NCBI RefSeq assembly: GCF_000687995.1
Contig: NZ_JIAC01000001.1
Location: 496,001-560,000 of the forward strand
Direction of reading: 5' to 3'
DNA from: Selenomonas ruminantium AC2024
Lineage (GTDB): Bacteria; Bacillota; Negativicutes; Selenomonadales; Selenomonadaceae
Length of the DNA stretch: 64,000 bases
The notes below the pieces were generated by a model, which was given only the letters and a program-made list of their open reading frames with translations, searched no databases and was not told the DNA's origin. The position numbers were made by a program, and so were the translations under genes. The stretch's first letter is position 1. Every line of letters starts with the position of its first letter. Below are positions 27,318 through 52,301 of this stretch, piece by piece.

Positions 27318-27550
27318 TGTGGATAATTTCACAAATTCTGCGCATATCCACAGAAAAACTGTTGATAACTCAGTTTTATTTTGGTAAGATATTGTTGGTA
27401 ATTTTGCGGATAACTTCACAGGACTTGATTTTTCGGGAGGGTTCGACTCCCGCATTTTTATCCCCTTTTCCCGCCTCGTCCCTTGCGGAAGCCTTCATTT
27501 ATCCACAGCTGTGGATAATCATGTGGATAAACTTATACACCTGTGGAAAA
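27318..27550. other. oriC: Origin sub-region upstream of dnaA (DnaA-box cluster)
   Basis: This part of the rpmH-dnaA gap has perfect DnaA boxes (TTATCCACA or its complement) at 27318, 27499, 27510 and 27522. Near-matches with one change lie at 27344, 27360, 27405 and 27542. Boxes 27499, 27510 and 27522 form a tight triad with 2- and 3-nt gaps. The cluster should bind DnaA and probably autoregulates dnaA. It would be the first half of a bipartite origin. Confidence 0.85.
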
Positions 27551-27592: not shown

Positions 27593-29014
27593 ATGGAGCA
27601 AACACAGCTGCAGGCTGTCTGGGCCCAGATTCTCGACAAGATGAAAGAACAGCTAGCCCCCACAGCCTTTAATTGGCTAAATCCCGTTCAGCCTCTCTCC
27701 CTGACAGACGATACTTTGGAACTTGGCACTCAAAACGAGATGTCCAAGGAATGGATTGCCGGACACTATCAGACTTTTATCGAAGATGCGGTAAAAGCTG
27801 TGTTAGGCGACCCCAAGGTTGTCCAGCTGACGGTGATGGCAGAAGCCAGCACGGCAGGCCAGGAAGATGCCCCCGTAGTGGTAGAGGCCAAAAACGAAAA
27901 ACCCGCGCAGGGAACGCTTTTCCCCGAAGGTGGCGCAGAGGCACATGCAGAAGTTGTTGCGGAACCTCATATTGTGGCTCCCGGCGACAATTCCTCTTTG
28001 AACCCCAAATACACCTTTGATACGTTCGTAACGGGTAAGTCCAACAATTTCGCTCATGCAGCTGCTATGGCCGTAGCCGATAAACCCGGCAAGACCTACA
28101 ATCCTTTCTTTATGTACGGCGGTGTGGGGCTGGGCAAGACCCATCTCATGCACGCCATTGGCAACCGGGTGCTCAAGAACCATCCGGAAATGCGGGTACT
28201 CTACGTATCCAGCGAGCAGTTCACCAACGAAATCATTCAGGCCATCCAGCAGGGTACCTCGGATAAATTCCGTCAGAAGTACCGCAACATCGATGTGCTG
28301 CTGATTGACGATATTCAGTTTATTTCTGGCAAGACCAGTACGCAGGAAGAATTCTTCCATACCTTCAACACGCTCTATGACGCCCAAAAACAGGTTATAC
28401 TGTCCTCCGATAGGCCGCCCAGAGAAGTGGAACGCCTCGAAGAACGCCTGCGCTCCCGCTTTGAGTGGGGCCTGACCACGGATATCCAGGCGCCGGATTT
28501 GGAAACCCGCATCGCCATCCTCAAGAATAAGGCCCAGAGCGACCACTTCAGCGTACCTGATGATGTGATGGTCTACATTGCCAGCCGCATCGACAGCAAC
28601 ATTCGAGAGCTGGAAGGTGCCCTGACCCGGGTAGTTGCTTATGCCTCCCTGACCAAGAGAACCGTTAACACGGATCTGGTGGCCGAAGCCCTCAAGGATA
28701 TTTTCCCCAACGGCAAAGCCAAGGAAGTCACCATGGACATCATTCAAGAAATCGTGGCCTCCTATTTCAAAATTAAAATCGAAGACCTTCATTCCAAGAA
28801 GCGTACCCGTAATATCGCCTATCCCCGGCAGATTGCCATGTATCTGTGCCGGGATTTGACGGAAACCTCTCTGCCCCAGATTGGCCAGTTCTTTGGCGGG
28901 CGTGATCACACCACCGTTATCCATGCCTATGACAAAATCAATCAGGACAAGGAAACGGATAACCGTCTCAAAGGCATCTTAAACGAACTGATTGACCGTA
29001 TTCAGAAGGTCTGA
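27593..29014 (+). CDS. dnaA: Chromosomal replication initiator DnaA
   Basis: A 473-residue initiator with four domains: the N-terminal interaction domain (1-90), a variable Ala/Glu-rich linker (about 90-140), the AAA+ domain with Walker A GGVGLGKTH (Lys182), Walker B VLLIDDIQF and the box VII arginine region, and the C-terminal DNA-binding domain with GGRDHTTVIHAYDKI. It opens the DNA at oriC, located between this gene and dnaN. An AGAAAGGAAC sequence lies ten bases before the ATG. Confidence 0.98.
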   Translation: MEQTQLQAVWAQILDKMKEQLAPTAFNWLNPVQPLSLTDDTLELGTQNEMSKEWIAGHYQTFIEDAVKAVLGDPKVVQLTVMAEASTAGQEDAPVVVEAKNEKPAQGTLFPEGGAEAHAEVVAEPHIVAPGDNSSLNPKYTFDTFVTGKSNNFAHAAAMAVADKPGKTYNPFFMYGGVGLGKTHLMHAIGNRVLKNHPEMRVLYVSSEQFTNEIIQAIQQGTSDKFRQKYRNIDVLLIDDIQFISGKTSTQEEFFHTFNTLYDAQKQVILSSDRPPREVERLEERLRSRFEWGLTTDIQAPDLETRIAILKNKAQSDHFSVPDDVMVYIASRIDSNIRELEGALTRVVAYASLTKRTVNTDLVAEALKDIFPNGKAKEVTMDIIQEIVASYFKIKIEDLHSKKRTRNIAYPRQIAMYLCRDLTETSLPQIGQFFGGRDHTTVIHAYDKINQDKETDNRLKGILNELIDRIQKV

Positions 29015-29019
29015 TAATG

Positions 29020-29051
29020 CCACGCCCTCGTTATGCACAATGAGGGCGTGG
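29020..29051. other. Strong hairpin between dnaA and the origin boxes
   Basis: CCACGCCCTC and GAGGGCGTGG form a perfect 10-bp GC-rich stem just after the dnaA stop. There is no T run, so it is a weak candidate for termination. Its loop contains the near-consensus DnaA box TTATGCACA and its 3' arm overlaps CGTGGATAA. Confidence 0.7.
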
Positions 29052-29275
29052 ATAACTTTGTGGAAATGCCTATTGAAATCTTGTTAGCAAAATGTGGATA
29101 AGTGAGAGCTGTGATTAAGTCCGTGGATAATGTGGATAACCGGCCCTATTGTTTTCAACACATTATTAACAGGCCGCTTGTAGATAAACTACTACACCGC
29201 AGGGCTTTTCCACATTTCCACAGGCCCTACTACTACTACGGCTATTTATTTATATATTTCTAGAGTCATAATAAA
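29031..29275. other. oriC: oriC unwinding region with DnaA boxes and DnaA-trios
   Basis: DnaA boxes lie at 29093 and 29131 (perfect) and at 29031, 29047, 29122, 29179 and 29206 (one change). After the last boxes comes GGCCCTACTACTACTACGG: the lower strand reads TAG four times (29228-29239), the DnaA-trio that loads DnaA on single strand, next to an AT-rich stretch at 29240-29270. Box, GC-rich spacer, trio and AT-rich order matches B. subtilis oriC in the dnaA-dnaN gap. This is the probable start point of replication; gene strand bias switches around here. Confidence 0.9.
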
Positions 29276-29295: not shown

Positions 29296-30408
29296 ATGAA
29301 AATAACATGCCCAAAATCTGAGCTGACCAATGCCCTTTCCATTGTTGCCAAAGCAATCGCTTCCAAACCCCAGACCCCCATTCTGGCAGGAATTTTTATG
29401 AGAGCGGAAAACGGTATCTTGGAACTTCATGCCACCAACAATGAGATCGGCATGGTCTGCCGTATCCCTGTAGATATTGAAGAACCGGGACAGATTGCCG
29501 TCAGCGGACGTTATTTCCTGGATGTTATCCGCAAGCTTCCTGGGGATAGTCTGACCATCACCTATAACCGCACGGAGAAAATCATCAACATCACTTCCAA
29601 TCAGGCCAGCTTTACCCTGCTCAGCATGAATGCGGCAGAGTTTCCAACCGTTAAGGAAATCGAGAGCAACGTAGAATTCACCATCAAGGACAACATCCTG
29701 CGCGCTTTGATTAAGAAAACTGTTTTTGCCTGCTCCAAAGATGAGTCCCGTCCGGTTTTCACCGGCTGCTATCTGGAAGTTGCTGACAACAAAGTCACCA
29801 TGGCAGCTACCAATATGCACAGATTGGCTGTGAAATACGAACAGTTTGCAGAACCACTGGGCAATATCAAAATCATTATCCCGGCCAATATTCTGCAGGA
29901 ACTTCTCCACAATATGACTTCGGATATCCCCACGGATGTGCATGTTTGCTGCAACTTTAATCAGATTAGCTTTGCCTTTGATAATATCTACATGACTTCC
30001 CGTCTCATCGAAGGTGCATATCCCGATTACAATTACGTTATCCCGCCTAATCACGATACGTTAGTCACGCTGGACTCGGCGGAATTCAACGCTGCTGTTG
30101 ACCGCGTTTCCCTGATTTCCCGGGCTGGTGATTACAATGTCATCAAGATGGAGTTCGCCAATGGCCAGCTCCATATCACCTCAAACAATCCGGATATCGG
30201 TAACGCCGAAGAAACGATTCCCGCTTCCATCGAAGGCCCCGAGGTAACCATCGCCTTCAACGCTCAGTACATCACGGATGTGATGAAGATTATCGACAGC
30301 AAAAACTGCGAACTGCGTCTGACCAAACCCCTCTCCCCCATGACGGTGCGGGAAGAAAAGGATGATGCCTTTATCTATGTCGTTACGCCGGTACGTACGG
30401 CCCATTAA
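29296..30408 (+). CDS. dnaN: DNA polymerase III beta sliding clamp
   Basis: A 370-residue clamp of standard size with the three repeated beta folds: MKITCPKSELTNALSIVAKA at the start, SGRYFLDVIRKLPGD, ADNKVTMAATNMHRLAV in the middle and the C-terminal ITSNNPDIGNAEE and INAQYITDVMKII-like segments. Its C-terminal residues PVRTAH correspond to the usual P-(M/V)-R end. It tethers polymerase III to DNA. AAGAAAGGACC precedes the ATG. Confidence 0.97.
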   Translation: MKITCPKSELTNALSIVAKAIASKPQTPILAGIFMRAENGILELHATNNEIGMVCRIPVDIEEPGQIAVSGRYFLDVIRKLPGDSLTITYNRTEKIINITSNQASFTLLSMNAAEFPTVKEIESNVEFTIKDNILRALIKKTVFACSKDESRPVFTGCYLEVADNKVTMAATNMHRLAVKYEQFAEPLGNIKIIIPANILQELLHNMTSDIPTDVHVCCNFNQISFAFDNIYMTSRLIEGAYPDYNYVIPPNHDTLVTLDSAEFNAAVDRVSLISRAGDYNVIKMEFANGQLHITSNNPDIGNAEETIPASIEGPEVTIAFNAQYITDVMKIIDSKNCELRLTKPLSPMTVREEKDDAFIYVVTPVRTAH

Positions 30409-33050: not shown

Positions 33051-35075
<2,025 letters not shown>

Positions 35076-43884: not shown

Positions 43885-43913
43885 AATTTGAAGTACGAAC
43901 TAAGCTTATGAAG

Positions 43914-45170
43914 TTAACGGGTTTTGCTTACCCCTGCGCTGGGGGTTGGTACGGAGGAATCTCCGCTGTTATCGGTGTTGGGAGCACTTTGACGGCGGTC
44001 GGAGCGGGAAGTTTCTTCACGGTTGCCCCGTTCTTCGCTGTTGCGGGTGCGTTCCTCACGGTCTATATTTTTGTCTTCGCTGCGTTTATTCTTATCGGCT
44101 TTTTCTTCGCGGCGGCGGTTCTTGCTGCTGTCGGAAGGTCTGGCCTTGCCAATGGAGGTATCGCTGGCAGGAACTTCGCTGGCGCTGGCCGGAATGCTGT
44201 TTTCATACTCGCGGATATCGGCTTCCATCTTGGTCTTGTACTTGCCGCTGAGGGATACGCCAAGAGTGTCAGCAACCGTCATACGGAGCTTGTTGAGGTT
44301 CGGAATCCAATAGCTGATGCCGTCGATGTAGAGCGGTCTGCCCGGCACCATATCGGTTTTAAGGCCGTTTTCCTTGGATTGTTTCAGCGTACCGGCAAAT
44401 TCCAGCAGCTGGCGGAAGGTCAAATCCGTCTGGATGGAATCCATGACTTCCTTGATAACGGAAGGCAGCTTCGGAATAATGGCCGGGGAAACAATCTTAT
44501 CCATGCAGGCGCGCATAAAATCCTGCTGGCGGCGGATACGGCCCAAATCCCCTTCTTCGTCACGGTAGCGCACATAGGTTACGGCTTTTGCGCCATCCAT
44601 ATGCTGCATACCCGGCTGGAAGTCAATGATAAGGCCGCCGTCATCATCCCAAGGGTCTTCGTAGTGCATGCGTTTGGGCACATCAATATCAATGCCACCA
44701 ATGGCATCAATAATTTTCTTAAATGACTTGGTATTAATGATGATGTAATGGTCAATATTTACGCCCAGCAGGTTTTCTACTGTGTCCTGAGAGAGTTTTT
44801 CCTTGCCATAGGCATAGGCAGCGTTGACCTTGTCAAAGCCATGGCCTTTGATTTTTACACGGGTATCGCGGGGCACGGAGAGCAGCGAAGCCTGATTGGT
44901 CTTGGGGTCGATGGAGGCAATCATCAGCGTGTCGCTGCGGCCTACATCATCGTCACGCTCATCCACACCCATAATCATAATGGTGGCCTTATCCTTGGCG
45001 GTAATCAGTTCTTCACTCTGTTTCTTTTCCACAGGTTTTTCCAGCAGACTGTTGCTGGCATAGTACGCACCAGCCAAAGCTGCGGAGATAAACACCAGTA
45101 CCATCAGCACCCAAGGCCAGATACGGCGTTTCTTCTTTGCCTTGCGAGGAGGAATATTGGAAGTTTGCAA
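43914..45170 (-). CDS. LytR-CpsA-Psr (LCP) family cell-envelope ligase
   Basis: A 418-residue membrane protein with a positively charged N-terminus, one membrane helix (about residues 17-38) and an extracellular LCP domain. Conserved pieces are ATIMIMGVDERDDD, LLSVPRDTRVKIKG with catalytic arginines, GFDKVNAAYAYG, and YVRYRDEEGDLGRIRRQQDF. LCP enzymes attach polymers to peptidoglycan. The last 85 residues are a low-complexity charged tail rich in Arg, Glu and Ser, outside the domain. Monocistronic. Confidence 0.9.
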   Translation of the reverse strand: MQTSNIPPRKAKKKRRIWPWVLMVLVFISAALAGAYYASNSLLEKPVEKKQSEELITAKDKATIMIMGVDERDDDVGRSDTLMIASIDPKTNQASLLSVPRDTRVKIKGHGFDKVNAAYAYGKEKLSQDTVENLLGVNIDHYIIINTKSFKKIIDAIGGIDIDVPKRMHYEDPWDDDGGLIIDFQPGMQHMDGAKAVTYVRYRDEEGDLGRIRRQQDFMRACMDKIVSPAIIPKLPSVIKEVMDSIQTDLTFRQLLEFAGTLKQSKENGLKTDMVPGRPLYIDGISYWIPNLNKLRMTVADTLGVSLSGKYKTKMEADIREYENSIPASASEVPASDTSIGKARPSDSSKNRRREEKADKNKRSEDKNIDREERTRNSEERGNREETSRSDRRQSAPNTDNSGDSSVPTPSAGVSKTR

Positions 45171-45326
45171 AAATCATACCTTCTTTTCTTCAAAATTGTT
45201 ATGGATTCTTACTCATTGTAACACATGTTTATTATAAACTAATTAAGTATAACAAACAAATCTGAAAAAAGCGAGGGTTCAGTGGAAAAAATGTTACAAT
45301 ATAGAGAGTAAAGGAGGTTGAGGTTC

Positions 45327-45791
45327 ATGGCAAAGGAAATTGAACGGAAATTTTTGGTGAAAGACAGCTGGCAGCCGCAAAGCGCAGGCATAAAAATAGC
45401 TCAGGGTTATTTGTCCACAGTGCCGGAGCGTACGGTGCGGGTGCGGATAAAGGGAGAGAAAGGGTATCTGACCATCAAGGGAAAGAATGTGGGGGTCAGC
45501 CGGGCAGAGTATGAATATGAAATCCCCCGGCAGGATGCAGAGGAAATGCTGCAGCTGGCCGAGCAGCCCATTCTCGTCAAGACCCGCTATTTGGAACAGC
45601 AGGGAGCATTCACTTGGGAAGTGGATGTTTTCGCGGGCGAAAATCAGGGACTGGTAGTGGCAGAAATCGAACTGCCGGCAGAGGATGCGGAGTTTTCGCG
45701 TCCGGCCTGGCTGGGACAGGAAGTATCCGGTGATGTCCGTTACTACAATGCAAACTTAATAAAATTCCCATTTTCCCTGTGGAAAAAGTAG
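45327..45791 (+). CDS. CYTH domain (triphosphate tunnel) protein
   Basis: A 154-residue protein beginning MAKEIERKFLVK, containing the ExExK motif. It continues with alternating charged strands (VRVRIKGEKGYLTIKG, VVAEIELPAEDAEFSRP), as in bacterial YgiF/NeuTTM-type triphosphatases, which usually hydrolyse inorganic tripolyphosphate. The start follows AAAGGAGGTTGAGG. The end of the gene merges into the DnaA-box cluster. Confidence 0.88.
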   Translation: MAKEIERKFLVKDSWQPQSAGIKIAQGYLSTVPERTVRVRIKGEKGYLTIKGKNVGVSRAEYEYEIPRQDAEEMLQLAEQPILVKTRYLEQQGAFTWEVDVFAGENQGLVVAEIELPAEDAEFSRPAWLGQEVSGDVRYYNANLIKFPFSLWKK

Positions 45792-46054
45792 GATTTTGTA
45801 ACATTATGGGTCGACTTGGGGATATCCACAAGATTTAGGCATAAATCTGGGGATAAAAGCACAAAATGTAGTTGATAAGCGTTTGTCAAGCTGAAAATAT
45901 GGGGTTATCCACGGATTTATCCACATTATCCACAGATTTTGCCCAGACGAGCATAGACAATATTCACATGATGCTTATATATTATAGAAAGAAAAGGCAA
46001 AAAAACAGGGAGAAGTTCATACTTATCCACACCTGTGGATTATTATGTGGATAA
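45778..46054. other. DnaA-box cluster away from oriC
   Basis: Perfect boxes lie at 45917, 45926 (directly abutting), 46023 and 46046. Boxes with one change lie at 45778, 45832, 45848, 45905 and 46034, and a weaker one at 45870. The group 46023-46054 has the same order and gaps as the triad upstream of dnaA at 27499-27530. The 370-bp gap between the CYTH and MgtC genes has no gene. No DnaA-trio or long AT-rich run is seen. It may titrate or recharge DnaA, or be an accessory origin part. Confidence 0.85.
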
Positions 46055-46162
46055 AATGTTCCCTTATTTGGCGGGATTCACATGGACAGGCAGGATTTTT
46101 TTGGCTGAAGGCGAATTCATAAGAGAATAGGCATGATTAGTGGAAGAAAGAGGTGAGAAGTC

Positions 46163-46843
46163 ATGCTGTCGGAATGGGAGTTGTTTCTGAGGCTGGTTCT
46201 CTCCTGTGTTTTGGGCGGTATCATCGGTTATGAGCGCCAGTCCCGTAGAAAATCGGCGGGGTTGCGTACCAATGTGCTGGTATGTCTTGGTTCCTGTTTG
46301 ATTATGGTCATGTCCATCGGTCTGTATCAGGATGTTGAGGGCAAGACCAATGCTGACCCGGCACGTTTGGCAGCGCAGGTGGTCAGCGGCATTGGTTTCT
46401 TGGGCGCCGGTGCCATCATGAAGGAGGGGCTGTCCGTTACAGGCCTGACTACTGCTGCCTGCCTTTGGGTGGTGGCTGGCGTTGGCTTAGCGGTAGGAGC
46501 TGGCTTTTATACTGGGGCGCTTATCAGTACCGGTTTGGTGTTTGTGACTTTGGGCAGGCTATCCCGCTTAGATGACTGGGTGGACCATGAGAAGAATCTT
46601 TCGCTCAATATCCACACAGTGGACAGGCCTGGGCAGCTTATGCGCATCAGCCGCTGTCTGGAGGATTTGCAGCTGCGGGTCAGAGGTGTAAAGGTCAATG
46701 CTGCTGATGATGAAATGGAAGAGGGCGGCGAGCGCTCGATGTATATTGATTTGGAAATTTTCAACAAGCAGAGTATCAAGAGCATCATCATTGTCGATGC
46801 TGTGCGGCAGATAGATGGTGTTATTCGGGTGGATGTTGTCTAA
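46163..46843 (+). CDS. MgtC/SapB family membrane protein
   Basis: A 226-residue protein. Four or five membrane segments in the first 140 residues hold the family motifs LGGIIGYERQSRRKSAGLRTN, AAQVVSGIGFLGAGAIM and TGLTTAACLWVVAGVGLAVG in parts. The last 85 residues form a cytosolic ACT-like domain (NIHTVDRPGQLMRISRCLEDL). MgtC proteins help growth in low magnesium and modulate ATP synthase in some pathogens. No Mg leader element was recognised upstream. Confidence 0.9.
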   Translation: MLSEWELFLRLVLSCVLGGIIGYERQSRRKSAGLRTNVLVCLGSCLIMVMSIGLYQDVEGKTNADPARLAAQVVSGIGFLGAGAIMKEGLSVTGLTTAACLWVVAGVGLAVGAGFYTGALISTGLVFVTLGRLSRLDDWVDHEKNLSLNIHTVDRPGQLMRISRCLEDLQLRVRGVKVNAADDEMEEGGERSMYIDLEIFNKQSIKSIIIVDAVRQIDGVIRVDVV

Positions 46844-48990: not shown

Positions 48991-49003
48991 TATAGATCAG
49001 AAA

Positions 49004-49073
49004 CTCAAACTTCGCATATCTGAAATAAGCTCTCTACGGGACAGTGGCTTGTTTTAGATGTGCGAATTTTGAG
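49004..49073. repeat. Inverted repeat/hairpin between the small exported gene and the nuclease gene
   Basis: 27-nt arms (49004-49030 and 49047-49073) match in 22 positions around a 16-nt loop. No T run follows, so it is not a clear terminator. The left arm is repeated at 48479, 525 bp upstream. Confidence 0.7.
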
Positions 49074-49095
49074 TAATATATAAGAGGAAAATAAA

Positions 49096-50754
49096 ATGGA
49101 ACCCATATTAGTAATAGTAGTTTTGGTGTTTTTATATATTTTTCATTTGAGATTTAAAGTGTCACATCTAAGAGAAGAAGTAAAGAAAATAAGCGATGAG
49201 AAACAATATGAATTAATTTCTAAAGTTAATGATAATATAAGGATGAAAAATGAGGAGTTTGAAGACAAAGTCAATGGGTTTGTTAAAAAGGTAAATGAAC
49301 TTCAAAAAGAAATAAAAATTTTATTGAATAAGAAACATGAGGACCATGGGATAAGAAGAAAATCATTAAGAGGGGATTTACTAGAAGATGCGATTGATTA
49401 TATAATTAGCGAACAAAAAAATATAAATGAAACATACAAAATATGGATTGACAAAATAAATAATGAAAGTAATACGAAGAAAAGGGAGATAGAAGATAAG
49501 GAAAGAGAATTTAGCAATAAAAAACAAGAAATACTTGATGAGATAGAGTCTTATTCACAAAAAAGAAGAAAAATATTTACAAGACGGGTAAATGAGATCA
49601 TCCAAATAATAAAAGAACTTCAAGATAAAACATATTTAATCACAGGTGAGAAATATGAAGAAAGTAGTGTGAGTTACGTATCGGGAGAAGGAGATGTATT
49701 AGAGAAAGCACTTAAAGAACTAGTGAATGGGCAGAAAAACATAAATGACGAGTATAAAAAGATACAGGAGAAAGTGACGATGCAAAAGGAGTTACTTTCG
49801 AAAAAAATTATAGAATTTCCTTTTTTAACCACTGTGCTTGCAGATTATGATACAGCAAAAGAAAAAGCTGCTATTGAATATTTAACATATAAAAGGCAAT
49901 CTGCGCCTAAAACGGCAAAGATAGTAGAAGAGATAAAACAAGAAAAGAAAAAGTGTTTGGAAGAATTATATGCTTATAGATGGGAATTAGCATATCTGCA
50001 TAATTTGTTACCCTGGCTTGGAGAAATGGAACGTGAGCCAGTATCTTCTCCAGTAGTATATAATGATGAGAACAACAAAGATAGCGTTGCAAATTGGGTA
50101 AGTCCTAAAGAATATAAAGAGTTATCGGAGATAGATAGAAATCAGTTAGCGCTAGACCGATATATGAAGCGTAAAAAGACAAAATGGCAAATCGGAATGG
50201 AGTATGAAAGATATATAGGATATAGATATGAGAAAAAAGGGTACAAGGTTAAATATTTTGGTATAGAGGAAGGCTTAGAAGATTTGGGGCGTGATTTGAT
50301 ATGTTATAGAGAAAATGATATTCATGTTGTTCAATGTAAGTGTTGGTCTGCCAAAAAAGAAATACATGAAAAACATATCAATCAATTATTTGGTACTACT
50401 GTAATGTACTATTTCTCGGAAATAAATCCTAAAGGTAGCTTTAGCGAATTCTATAACTATATAAAAAATGGTCATTTGATTCCGGTTTTTGTAACGACGA
50501 CGAGTTTTTCGCCTACAGCTAGGAAGTTTGCAAAATCATTGAAGGTCTTGGCTTTGACTGTACCTTTAGATGATTACCCCATGATTAAATGTAATATTAA
50601 TCGTACAACAGGAGAAAAAATTTATCATTTACCATTTGACCAGCAATACGATAAATGTGTAATAGACCAATCAGAAGGCGAATTTTATGCAAAAACTGTA
50701 AAAGAAGCAGAAGCTAATGGATTTAGAAGAGCAATGAGGTGGCACGGAAATTAG
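49096..50754 (+). CDS. Membrane-anchored coiled-coil protein with Mrr-like restriction endonuclease domain
   Basis: A 552-residue protein. One N-terminal membrane helix (residues 3-20) is followed by long charged coiled coils (about 22-300). The nuclease-like domain (about 355-480) has GMEYERYIGYRYEKKGY near 366, Asp at about 399-400 in GRDLI and VVQCKCW near 412, a D...QxK version of the PD-(D/E)xK site seen in Mrr-type enzymes. The end has FYAKTVKEAEANGFRRA, a short Cys-poor variant of a tail found after such domains. The gene is much more AT-rich than its surroundings, a sign of transfer. It may be a defence nuclease acting at the membrane. Confidence 0.75.
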   Translation: MEPILVIVVLVFLYIFHLRFKVSHLREEVKKISDEKQYELISKVNDNIRMKNEEFEDKVNGFVKKVNELQKEIKILLNKKHEDHGIRRKSLRGDLLEDAIDYIISEQKNINETYKIWIDKINNESNTKKREIEDKEREFSNKKQEILDEIESYSQKRRKIFTRRVNEIIQIIKELQDKTYLITGEKYEESSVSYVSGEGDVLEKALKELVNGQKNINDEYKKIQEKVTMQKELLSKKIIEFPFLTTVLADYDTAKEKAAIEYLTYKRQSAPKTAKIVEEIKQEKKKCLEELYAYRWELAYLHNLLPWLGEMEREPVSSPVVYNDENNKDSVANWVSPKEYKELSEIDRNQLALDRYMKRKKTKWQIGMEYERYIGYRYEKKGYKVKYFGIEEGLEDLGRDLICYRENDIHVVQCKCWSAKKEIHEKHINQLFGTTVMYYFSEINPKGSFSEFYNYIKNGHLIPVFVTTTSFSPTARKFAKSLKVLALTVPLDDYPMIKCNINRTTGEKIYHLPFDQQYDKCVIDQSEGEFYAKTVKEAEANGFRRAMRWHGN

Positions 50755-50770
50755 AATGTGAATAGCCTAA

Positions 50771-50971
50771 GGCACGGGCAGGGAGCTTTACTAAGCGAAG
50801 CCTTTGCCCGTTGGCGTAAAGAAATAAAATTTTGCCTTCCGCTATTTCCTCTAAAAAGGTCTTTTGTCTGAGCAAAGCGAGTTTAAGACCGTTTAGAGGA
50901 TAAGTTAGAAGGCAAAATTTTATTTTAGCCAGCGGGCAACAGCGCAGCGTGTAAAGCTCCCTGCCCGTGCC
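50771..50971. repeat. Near-complete 200-bp palindrome, short member of the stem-loop family
   Basis: Outer arms of 20 nt (50771-50790 and 50952-50971) and inner arms of 18 nt (50822-50839 and 50908-50925) are perfectly complementary. Between them lies a hairpin TCCTCTAAA... / ...GTTTAGAGGA with loop CTGAGCAAAGCGAG. The loop and the GACCGTTTAGAGGA box resemble CTGAACGCAGTGAA and GGTCGTTTAGCGGA in the element at 20157-20638. It follows the AT-rich nuclease gene and precedes the purine permease stop, so it could end both transcripts. Confidence 0.8.
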
Positions 50972-50993
50972 GCCTTAATATATCGTTTTTAAG

Positions 50994-52301
50994 TTATGAC
51001 CGCATAACAAGATTGATAAGAAAAGCCAAACTAATCACCAGCATAATCGGCTTAACTTCTTTATACCGTCCCGTAGTCAGCTTCAGCACCACATAGCTGA
51101 TAAAACCAAAGGCAAAGCCGCTGGCGATGCTGTAGGTCAGCGGCATCATAATGATGGTCAGGAAGGCCGGTACGCCGTCGGTGAGGTCGGAAAAGTCAAT
51201 GTCCTTGACGGAAGAAATCATCAAAGCACCGATGAGAATCAGCGCAGAGGCCGTCGCATAGCTGGGCACTAAGGCAATCAGCGGGGCGAACAGCAGCAGG
51301 GAGAGGAAGCCGAGCGCCGTGATAACGGCGGTAAGTCCTGTGCGGCCGCCGGCTTCAATACCCGTGGCGCTTTCCAGATAAGTGGTTACGGTAGAGGTGC
51401 CGACAAACGCACTGCCAATTGTGGCGAAGGCGTTCATGGTCAGTGCCTTGTTGAGGCCAGGGATTTCGCCATCTTCCTGCACCATATTGGCCCGGCGGGT
51501 CAAACTGATGAGCGTGCCGATATTATCGAAGAGTTCCACCATGGTAAAGGTGAAGATGATGGAGATAATCCCATAGTCCCAGGCACCTGCAATATCAAGC
51601 TGGACGAAGGAACCACTCACTGAGGGAATGTCGAAGCTGATAATATCGCTGATACCGTGGGGAATGGGAGAATATCCCAGCGCCATGGAGAGCAGTGTGG
51701 TCACGCCGATGCTGATGAGGATAGCTCCCTGCACGCCACGCACCATGAGAATGACTGTGAGCGCCAGTGTGAACATGGCAAAGACGGGGGCAGGCTGGGT
51801 AACGTCACCGAGCGCTACAAAGGTTGACGGGTCAGCTTGCAGGACACCGGCATTCTTGAGGCCAATAAAAGCGATAAACAGGCCGATACCGACCGTGATG
51901 GCCGCTTTGAGCGTATCCGGTACGGCATGAATGATGGCTTTCATAATGCCGCCGCAGGTCAGAATCAGAAAGACAATGCCCGAAAAGAACACGGCACCGA
52001 GGGCCACAGTCCAATGCAGGTGCAGGCTGCCGCAGACGTAGTAGGAAAAGAACGCGGCAAGGCCAAGTCCGGGGGCAAGTGCCACCGGGTAATTGACCAG
52101 CACACCCATAAAGAGGGTGGACACAGCGGTAATCAAAATCGTAGCAGCGATAGATGCTTCCTGGGGCACACCGGCATCCGTGAGCATGTGGGGAATGACA
52201 AAAACGATATAGGCCATGGCAATGAACGTGGTCAGCCCGGCAAAGAATTCTGTGCGTACCGTCGTTTCGCGGTCGCTCAGCTTAAATAGGCGGTCTAGCA
52301 T
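50994..52301 (-). CDS. NCS2 family purine permease
   Basis: A 435-residue transporter with about twelve membrane segments. Conserved pieces are FFAGLTTFIAMAYIVFVIP at the start, MGVLVNYPVALAPGLGLAAFFSY, TVGIGLFIAFIGLKNAG, and the later TMVELFDNIGTLISLTRRA and TSTVTTYLESATGIEAGGRTG in parts. These match the AzgA/PbuG/PbuO subgroup for guanine, hypoxanthine or adenine. No purine riboswitch was found upstream; an inverted-repeat element lies there instead. Confidence 0.9.
   Translation of the reverse strand: MLDRLFKLSDRETTVRTEFFAGLTTFIAMAYIVFVIPHMLTDAGVPQEASIAATILITAVSTLFMGVLVNYPVALAPGLGLAAFFSYYVCGSLHLHWTVALGAVFFSGIVFLILTCGGIMKAIIHAVPDTLKAAITVGIGLFIAFIGLKNAGVLQADPSTFVALGDVTQPAPVFAMFTLALTVILMVRGVQGAILISIGVTTLLSMALGYSPIPHGISDIISFDIPSVSGSFVQLDIAGAWDYGIISIIFTFTMVELFDNIGTLISLTRRANMVQEDGEIPGLNKALTMNAFATIGSAFVGTSTVTTYLESATGIEAGGRTGLTAVITALGFLSLLLFAPLIALVPSYATASALILIGALMISSVKDIDFSDLTDGVPAFLTIIMMPLTYSIASGFAFGFISYVVLKLTTGRYKEVKPIMLVISLAFLINLVMRS

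What the first reader, a model, noticed from the sequence alone, without database searches (positions are those of the whole stretch)
45778..46054. Dense DnaA-box cluster about 17 kb from oriC
Seen: four perfect TTATCCACA boxes, two of them abutting, and five with a single change within 277 bp of gene-free DNA between the CYTH and MgtC genes. No DnaA-trio or AT-rich unwinding region accompanies it. Established: clusters outside oriC (datA and DARS in E. coli, DnaA-box clusters in B. subtilis) titrate or recharge DnaA. Inference: a replication-control locus of this lineage.
Basis: partly seen in the sequence, partly recalled or inferred. Interest (0 to 1): 0.72.

Follow-up and report, generated by a model that had tools for sequence, protein, structure and literature searches.

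The report
Conserved DnaA-binding cluster near the origin
Near the place where this bacterium starts copying its chromosome there is a short stretch packed with binding sites for the start-up protein DnaA, kept in the same order and spacing in close relatives, which probably acts as a brake or timer on chromosome copying.

Summary
In detail: 4 perfect and 5 one-mismatch DnaA boxes in 277 bp, far above chance. One correction: the first box lies inside the CYTH gene.

The cluster is an ordered element, found in 20 of 22 genus genomes: an outlying box, 83-84 bp on a direct triple (offsets 0/12/21), and 117-119 bp after the start of the triple an inverted set (+, -11, -23), with an A/T motif between. 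Over all nine boxes 61 of 81 columns are invariant, against 47 of 286 others. A triple of this kind sits at the same place in 17 of 30 family genera, while either flanking gene may differ. The inverted set copies the layout of the dnaA-upstream part of oriC. DnaA-trios and the skew minimum are at dnaA-dnaN, not here.

Best reading: an oriC-proximal DnaA-binding complex, duplicated soon after initiation, that sequesters DnaA and restrains initiation, like the Bacillus subtilis DnaA-box clusters. Binding and function are inferred. Against: several lineages lack it, one genus has another outlying-box arrangement, and the role of the B. subtilis clusters is itself debated. Separately, a tsaD-adjacent cluster was seen in 19 of 48 chosen Negativicutes.

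The parts
45318..45791 (+). CYTH-domain gene, upstream neighbour
   Evidence: PF01928, E 2.7e-16
45778..45786 (-). one-mismatch DnaA box TTTTCCACA, inside the CYTH 3' end
   Evidence: present in 10 of 20 genus loci
45822..45830 (+). outlying box (ATATCCACA here, perfect TTATCCACA in 18 of 20 genus loci), 83 bp before array A
45848..45856 (-). one-mismatch box TTATCCCCA, variable among relatives
45905..45913 (+). array A, box A1 (TTATCCACG)
45917..45925 (+). array A, box A2 (perfect)
45926..45934 (+). array A, box A3 (perfect, abuts A2)
45975..45987 (+). A/T-rich motif TTATATATTATAG between arrays A and B; overlaps a weak promoter-like match 45954-45983
   Evidence: core in 20 of 20 genus loci, exact letters in 10 of 20; also in genera with other downstream genes; promoter scan 1 found against 1.4 expected
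46023..46031 (+). array B, box B1 (perfect)
46034..46042 (-). array B, box B2 (TAATCCACA)
46046..46054 (-). array B, box B3 (perfect)
46163..46843 (+). MgtC/SapB-family gene with ACT-like C-terminus, downstream neighbour (replaced by other genes in some relatives)
   Evidence: PF02308, E 5.8e-41
27499..27530 (.). oriC part upstream of dnaA: box set with the same +, -11, -23 layout as array B
   Evidence: 22 of 22 genus genomes
29031..29250 (.). oriC part between dnaA and dnaN: boxes, CTACTACTACTA trios at 29227, A/T-rich stretch

Best explanation
The region is a cis-acting DnaA-binding element: two box arrays and one outlying box that together seat a defined DnaA complex about 17 kb from oriC. 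It is copied very soon after initiation, which doubles a set of high-affinity sites. I infer that these sites sequester DnaA and so restrain early or repeated initiation, as has been proposed for the oriC-proximal DnaA-box clusters of Bacillus subtilis. Shown here: the boxes, their conservation, fixed spacing in the genus, fidelity to the place, and nearness to the origin. Inferred: DnaA binding, sequestration, and the effect on initiation timing.
For: Box density far above chance. Over all nine boxes 61 of 81 columns are invariant (mean major-letter frequency 0.951) against 47 of 286 other columns (0.666), permutation 0 of 10000; for the seven boxes picked as conserved, 58 of 63. Arrays A and B in 20 of 20 genus loci, A1-B1 117-119 bp. 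Outlying box 83-84 bp from A1 in 20 of 20 genus loci, and 83-85 bp in 17 of 19 chosen loci of other genera, two of which are the same genome. Four MgtC paralogue loci have no boxes. The cluster persists when MgtC is replaced by a cytidine deaminase or another gene and when CYTH has moved away (L143, L156). Distance to dnaA 18.3-43.6 kb in 12 of 12 same-contig genus genomes. All 7 groups of two or more perfect boxes outside oriC lie within 410 kb of dnaA. YabA was not found in the own genome while the control search was positive in B. subtilis and Lactococcus lactis; the DnaA search gave one match there, so it showed no Hda (not a dedicated Hda search). Precedent: removal of six B. subtilis clusters gives early initiation (passages of PMC5295017, and PMC13220808).
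Against: No binding or replication data. The element was not seen next to CYTH in 11 of 11 examined loci of genus g11, 4 of 4 of g3, 2 of 2 of g21, G164 of g22 and G044 of g5, and G019 (99% complete, own genus) has neither the MgtC orthologue nor the triple-box pattern, so it is not indispensable. Genus g6 has its outlying box at 69-70 bp and on the other strand in 14 of 14 loci, so the 83-85 bp rule is not family-wide. Other box groups exist in the own genome, so one locus may have a small effect. The precedent is weak: the B. [quoted passage not shown] subtilis (PMC5295017), and tenfold DnaA overproduction did not cause over-initiation there (PMC13220808). Conservation of the A/T motif is more than plain titration needs.
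Confidence: 0.55

Rival explanations
1. DnaA-controlled promoter: DnaA on arrays A and B represses or activates transcription starting at the A/T motif and running into the downstream gene (MgtC here).
For: Conserved A/T motif core; a promoter-like match 45954-45983, TAGACA-18-TATATT. B. subtilis DnaA regulates several genes (PMC4447404, passages). At the CYTH-side loci the first downstream gene that tblastn placed runs in the same direction.
Against: The downstream gene differs between genera (MgtC, cytidine deaminase, w52582 homologue) while the cluster stays. The A/T motif is absent in some loci that keep MgtC downstream, e.g. L117 and L143. The promoter match is at chance level (1 found, 1.4 expected).
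Confidence: 0.22
2. Active nucleotide switch: the complex promotes DnaA-ATP hydrolysis (datA-like) or ADP release (DARS-like), rather than only holding DnaA.
For: Fixed spacing in the genus suggests a defined complex. Array B has opposed boxes followed by a third, loosely like the DARS core described in PMC8682772 (passages).
Against: The same layout is part of oriC upstream of dnaA, so it is not specific to DARS. No IHF-like consensus with at most 1 mismatch between 45246 and 49310. Genus g6 has a different outlying-box arrangement.
Confidence: 0.1
3. Accessory or former replication origin.
For: Array layouts shared with both parts of oriC and an A/T-rich motif between them.
Against: No repeated CTA/TAG trios here, while CTACTACTACTA is present at dnaA-dnaN. 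The cumulative GC-skew minimum is at 29-30 kb.
Confidence: 0.04
4. Chance or compositional artefact, or a remnant with no function.
For: TTATCCACA is over-represented in the whole genome (90 against 9 for the reversed pattern), and 19 of 21 perfect boxes in 20 fetched stretches read as Val-Asp-Lys/Asn in the longest frame of the TGTGGATAA strand.
Against: 8 of the 9 clustered boxes are intergenic, most are conserved in exact register, and simulations never approach the density.
Confidence: 0.02

Closest known systems
Bacillus subtilis oriC-proximal DnaA-box clusters (Okumura et al. 2012; seen only through passages of reviews)
   Same: Groups of strong DnaA boxes outside a bipartite oriC; here seven such groups of perfect boxes, all within 410 kb of dnaA.
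   Different: CYTH/MgtC is not among the top B. subtilis regions shown in the passages of PMC4447404 (the table was cut after region 12). Box order and spacing are strictly conserved in this genus; whether the B. subtilis clusters have fixed spacing was not tested. YabA was not found in the own genome.
Escherichia coli datA
   Same: Non-coding multi-box locus away from oriC.
   Different: datA needs IHF (PMC5295017 passages); no IHF-like consensus here. Hydrolysis untested.
Escherichia coli DARS1/DARS2
   Same: Opposed boxes plus a third in a small core (PMC8682772 passages).
   Different: No Fis/IHF framework shown; the same box set is part of oriC in this genus. ADP release untested.
oriC of this genus (dnaA-upstream and dnaA-dnaN parts)
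   Same: Array B has the +, -11, -23 layout of the dnaA-upstream part; the abutting pair in array A resembles the abutting pair in dnaA-dnaN.
   Different: Lacks DnaA-trios and the skew minimum.

Membership tests
oriC-proximal DnaA-box cluster (B. subtilis kind) | Several strong DnaA boxes clustered outside oriC | tested here: met
   9 boxes in 277 bp, simulation maximum 3
oriC-proximal DnaA-box cluster (B. subtilis kind) | Lies near oriC | tested here: met
   18.3 kb from the dnaA start; 18.3-43.6 kb in 12 of 12 same-contig genus genomes
oriC-proximal DnaA-box cluster (B. subtilis kind) | Bound by DnaA in vivo | not testable with these tools
   needs ChIP
oriC-proximal DnaA-box cluster (B. 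subtilis kind) | Removal, together with the other clusters, advances initiation | not testable with these tools
   needs deletion strains
datA | IHF-binding site within the locus | tested here: not met
   no TAANNNNTTGATW with at most 1 mismatch between 45246 and 49310; IHF genes were not searched
datA | Promotes DnaA-ATP hydrolysis | not testable with these tools
   biochemistry
DARS | Core of three boxes, I and II opposed | tested here: inconclusive
   array B is + - -, but oriC in this genus has the same set
DARS | Releases ADP from DnaA | not testable with these tools
   biochemistry
replication origin | DnaA-trio repeats beside boxes | tested here: not met
   no repeated CTA/TAG in the focus; CTACTACTACTA at 29227 in dnaA-dnaN
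replication origin | GC-skew minimum | tested here: not met
   minimum at 29-30 kb
replication origin | A/T-rich unwinding region | tested here: inconclusive
   conserved A/T motif core, best 30-mer 83% A+T
DnaA-regulated promoter | Conserved link to one regulated gene | tested here: not met
   downstream gene varies, cluster stays
DnaA-regulated promoter | Promoter between or beside the boxes | tested here: inconclusive
   one weak match, chance level

The most novel reading that the evidence does not exclude
The element is an oriC mimic: it re-uses the dnaA-upstream box set of oriC plus a direct triple and an outlying box at near whole-turn distance to build a specific DnaA complex that cannot start replication but switches or locks DnaA. 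It would be a main initiation brake of a lineage in which YabA and Hda were not detected, i.e. an independent counterpart of datA/DARS in Negativicutes.
Probability: 0.15. Interest if true: 0.82.

Novelty: new member of a known kind. Interest (0 to 1): 0.55.

Why it matters
How initiation is controlled outside E. coli and B. subtilis is poorly known (general knowledge). Here is a small, conserved target in Negativicutes, in a genome where YabA was not found. Fixed spacing with changing neighbour genes points to selection on the DNA site itself rather than on one gene's promoter, and the spacing (83-85 bp in most loci tested, 72 bp in g19, 69-70 bp with the box turned round in g6) gives a testable question about helical phasing.

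Tried and rejected
Strand bias of perfect boxes (20 of 23 on '-' from 980 to 1782 kb, 17 of 19 on '+' from 1869 to 2756 kb) looked like a polar genome-wide signal. In 20 fetched stretches with 21 boxes, the longest stop-free frame on the TGTGGATAA strand reads Val-Asp-Lys or Val-Asp-Asn in 19 (exceptions L248, L255); in two of the 19 (L251, L252) the opposite strand has a longer frame and in one (L250) an equal one. These are open frames, not gene calls. Dropped as mostly codon usage.

MgtC regulation as the main role was tested through synteny and kept as a rival only. parS: three perfect 16-bp sites at 1553, 3050 and 11965, none near the cluster (letters recalled). Rfam found nothing at gathering scores in 25000-50000. 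One terminator-like match (46025-46040) is the inverted boxes themselves (1 found, 0.5 expected). A search of named genomes used a wrong spacing (offsets 0/11/20 instead of 0/12/21); its 17 hits, seven of them Exiguobacterium loci that carry dnaA, say nothing about this element and are not used. misread minus-strand loci; corrected. One search reported A = 0 through a pattern error of mine; corrected. One search counted only the seven boxes I had picked as conserved; one search repeats it with all nine.

Reasons: review passages against a strong role of the B. subtilis clusters had been left out, and g6 breaks the spacing rule.

Literature searches: 'DnaA box' with Selenomonas, 0 papers; with Negativicutes, 2 papers judged by title only; 'DnaA-box clusters' with conserved, Firmicutes and Bacillus subtilis, 6 papers. 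No title listed describes this locus; the library lacks most subscription papers.

Full report
OBSERVATION. The finding is real. Within 45778-46054 there are four perfect TTATCCACA boxes, two abutting, and five with one change. The first, 45778-45786, is inside the end of the CYTH ORF (45318-45791), so the gene-free gap 45792-46162 holds eight of the nine. In 400 first-order Markov simulations of 64 kb, no 277-bp stretch held more than 3 boxes with at most 1 mismatch, and no 138-bp stretch more than one perfect box. The window lies at 496001-560000 of a single-contig genome of 2,831,713 bases. dnaA is at 27593-29014 (translation, recognised by eye); dnaN at 29296 and gyrB at 33057 by Pfam. The cumulative GC-skew minimum is at 29-30 kb. 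The distance is about 17 kb from dnaA-dnaN, or 18.3 kb from the dnaA start.

ANATOMY. From left to right: an outlying + box (45822), array A (45905, 45917, 45926, all +, offsets 0/12/21), an A/T-rich motif TTATATATTATAG (45975-45987), and array B (46023 +, 46034 -, 46046 -, offsets 0/11/23). Array B has exactly the layout of the box set upstream of dnaA (27499 +, 27510 -, 27522 -). Within the window a perfect + box with a perfect - box 23 bp on occurs only at these two places, and the oriC copy is in 22 of 22 genus genomes. The abutting A2-A3 pair resembles the abutting pair in dnaA-dnaN. The dnaA-dnaN gap carries CTACTACTACTA followed by A/T-rich DNA, and the alignment of the 22 genus genomes shows this trio stretch, with some letters varying, in the rows printed (its output was cut in the middle). 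The focus has no repeated CTA or TAG on either strand.

CONSERVATION IN THE GENUS. The MgtC orthologue is present in 20 of 22 genus genomes. The two without a hit are G010 (81% complete) and G019 (99% complete); neither has the triple-box pattern. All 20 orthologue loci carry the element; four MgtC paralogue loci (52-54% identity) carry no boxes. Arrays A and B and the core of the A/T motif were each matched in 20 of 20 (the exact 13-letter motif in 10 of 20); a perfect outlying box in 18 of 20; the A1-B1 distance is 117-119 bp; the outlying box lies 83 or 84 bp before A1 in 20 of 20. Over all nine boxes of the window, 61 of 81 columns are invariant against 47 of 286 other columns, permutation 0 of 10000. 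For the seven boxes that I picked as conserved after seeing the alignment, it is 58 of 63; the boxes at 45778 and 45848 vary. Mean pairwise identity outside the seven boxes is 58%. The sequence between the boxes has drifted while the distances have not.

CONSERVATION IN THE FAMILY. A pattern for array A (at most 2 mismatches) occurs in 68 of 189 family genomes, 19 of 30 genera, with no match to the reversed control in any; the order-level search returned the same 189 genomes. In 17 of the 19 genera at least one genome has it at this place, beside CYTH, w44748 or MgtC; in g5 and g12 it was seen only elsewhere (counted by hand). Of the 30 loci read, 24 lie directly downstream of CYTH, one more (L067, g3) lies between homologues of two other neighbours (w44748 upstream, w46931 downstream), and five (L066, L068, L069, L086, L087) lie elsewhere. 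Downstream of the cluster there is MgtC in some genera, a cytidine deaminase (w46931) in others, or a w52582 homologue. In genus g23 CYTH has moved and the cluster remains beside w44748 and MgtC (L143, L156). So the element follows the place and not one gene.

SPACING IN OTHER GENERA. In 19 chosen loci of other genera (L090 and L107 are the same genome) the outlying box is 83-85 bp before A1 in 17, and 72 bp in the two g19 loci; these are near eight and seven turns of B-DNA (my arithmetic). Against a strict rule: in genus g6 the outlying box is at 69-70 bp and on the other strand in 14 of 14 loci. Further loci (among them L089, L115, L122, L135, L136, L145, L146, L148) were not in the spacing test and have other box arrangements. 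A1-B1 is 112-131 bp in the 15 of those 19 where array B was found. The A/T motif recurs in g2, g8, g17 and g27 with other downstream genes, and is missing or degraded in L063, L088, L117, L143, L147, L122 and g6 (read by eye).

WHERE IT IS MISSING. No comparable cluster next to CYTH was seen in 11 of 11 examined g11 loci (66 g11 genomes were in the search), 4 of 4 examined g3 loci (though L067 of g3 has it beside other neighbours), 2 of 2 g21 loci, G164 (g22), G044 (g5) and three displaced CYTH copies of g23. g12, g13 and g15 have weak remnants at most; g4, g18, g20 and g30 have boxes after CYTH but not the array-A pattern. G162 (g21) still has groups of perfect boxes elsewhere, at 2253379-2253432 and 2261410-2261695, with what looks like oriC at 2446825-2448121 (inferred from the box groups, dnaA was not located there). 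G100 (g11) has 13 perfect boxes and no group. So the element is old in the family but has been lost or replaced in several lines.

POSITION. In the genus, in all 12 genomes where dnaA and cluster share a contig, the distance is 18.3-43.6 kb, same side and same orientation (subtraction by hand). Outside the genus I could place 19 (counted by hand; G057, G138 and G161 left out, because of an unclear contig end, a different context and no array A): 18 lie within 62 kb of dnaA, eight of these on the other side or inverted (G045, G046, G049, G054, G056, G058, G141, G172), and one (G177) at 421 kb. In the own genome all seven groups of two or more perfect boxes outside oriC, this one included, lie within 410 kb of dnaA (about 2 in 10,000 if placed uniformly, with the limit chosen after looking), while single perfect boxes do not crowd there (17 within 420 kb, 18.4 expected).

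MECHANISM. Shown: box density, conservation, fixed spacing in the genus, independence from neighbour genes, nearness to oriC. Inferred: DnaA binds, forms a defined complex, and so draws DnaA away from oriC just after the locus is duplicated. Context: YabA (PF06156) was not found in the own genome while the control search was positive in B. subtilis and Lactococcus lactis; the DnaA search gave one match in the own genome, so it showed no Hda, but this was no dedicated Hda search. In B. subtilis, removal of six clusters outside oriC causes early initiation, strong only when all six are gone and partly relieved by one re-introduced cluster (PMC5295017, passages; PMC13220808, passages; the original paper, Okumura et al. 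2012, is not held). [quoted passage not shown] subtilis, and tenfold DnaA overproduction there did not cause over-initiation (PMC13220808). The fixed spacing is more than passive titration needs, which keeps an active switch open.

COMPARISON. It works most like the B. subtilis clusters and meets the two features testable here. It is not shown to be datA (no IHF-like consensus) or DARS (opposed boxes occur but also in oriC), and it fails two tested origin features. CYTH/MgtC is not among the B. subtilis regions visible in the passages of PMC4447404.

SECOND SITE. Outside the family the array-A pattern occurs in 17 of 191 Negativicutes genomes (85 of 380 less 68 of 189). All 17 loci were read: eight lie beside the 3' end of tsaD (tblastn; Pfam on two of them); of the rest, one locus checked by Pfam (L167) has a solute-binding protein gene beside the boxes and one (L174) a transporter subunit. 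Looking from tsaD in 48 chosen genomes, 19 have at least three boxes including one perfect box within 200 bp downstream; none of the nine family members examined does. Three of the 19 (G213, G224, G303) were known beforehand, and one (G231) just passes. B. subtilis has a strong DnaA-binding region downstream of gcp and ydiF that prefers DnaA-ATP (PMC4447404, passages). That gcp is tsaD is general knowledge. This suggests one old tsaD-adjacent cluster shared by Bacilli and Negativicutes, missing in the members of this family that I examined.

VERDICT. A real, conserved, ordered DnaA-box cluster near oriC; a new member of a known kind, with strict architecture in its genus. Function remains to be shown at the bench.

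Noticed in passing
L163-L166, L170-L173, L197-L244 (tsaD 3' flank): DnaA-box cluster just downstream of tsaD in 19 of 48 chosen Negativicutes genomes (three known beforehand), 0 of 9 in the own family; B. subtilis has a DnaA-binding cluster beside the same gene (gcp-ydiF). Possibly an ancient cluster.
   Followed up: partly
genome 213611-213664, 447256-447428, 644392-644719, 666702-666794, 895139-895213, 933128-933188 (L026-L031): Six further groups of perfect DnaA boxes outside oriC, all within 410 kb of dnaA; neighbours include an MFS transporter, a NifU-like protein with a flavin reductase, a YcbB-type response regulator, asparaginase and an MscS channel.
   Followed up: partly
genome-wide single TTATCCACA sites: Strong strand bias along both arms (20 of 23 and 17 of 19); in 19 of 21 boxes read it fits Val-Asp-Lys/Asn codons on the leading strand.
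   Followed up: yes
window 1553, 3050, 11965: Three perfect 16-bp parS sites left of oriC, none near the cluster (consensus recalled).
   Followed up: no
genus g11, G100: This genome has only 13 perfect DnaA boxes and no groups; its DnaA or box preference may have changed.
   Followed up: no
window 43908-44726 and 44748-45221: Two conserved genes upstream of CYTH with no Pfam or NCBIfam match that keep company with the cluster in many of the loci read.
   Followed up: no
window 49096-50754, G+C 0.29-0.36 around 49000-51000: Mrr-type restriction endonuclease gene in an A/T-rich, strongly skewed island, perhaps acquired.
   Followed up: no
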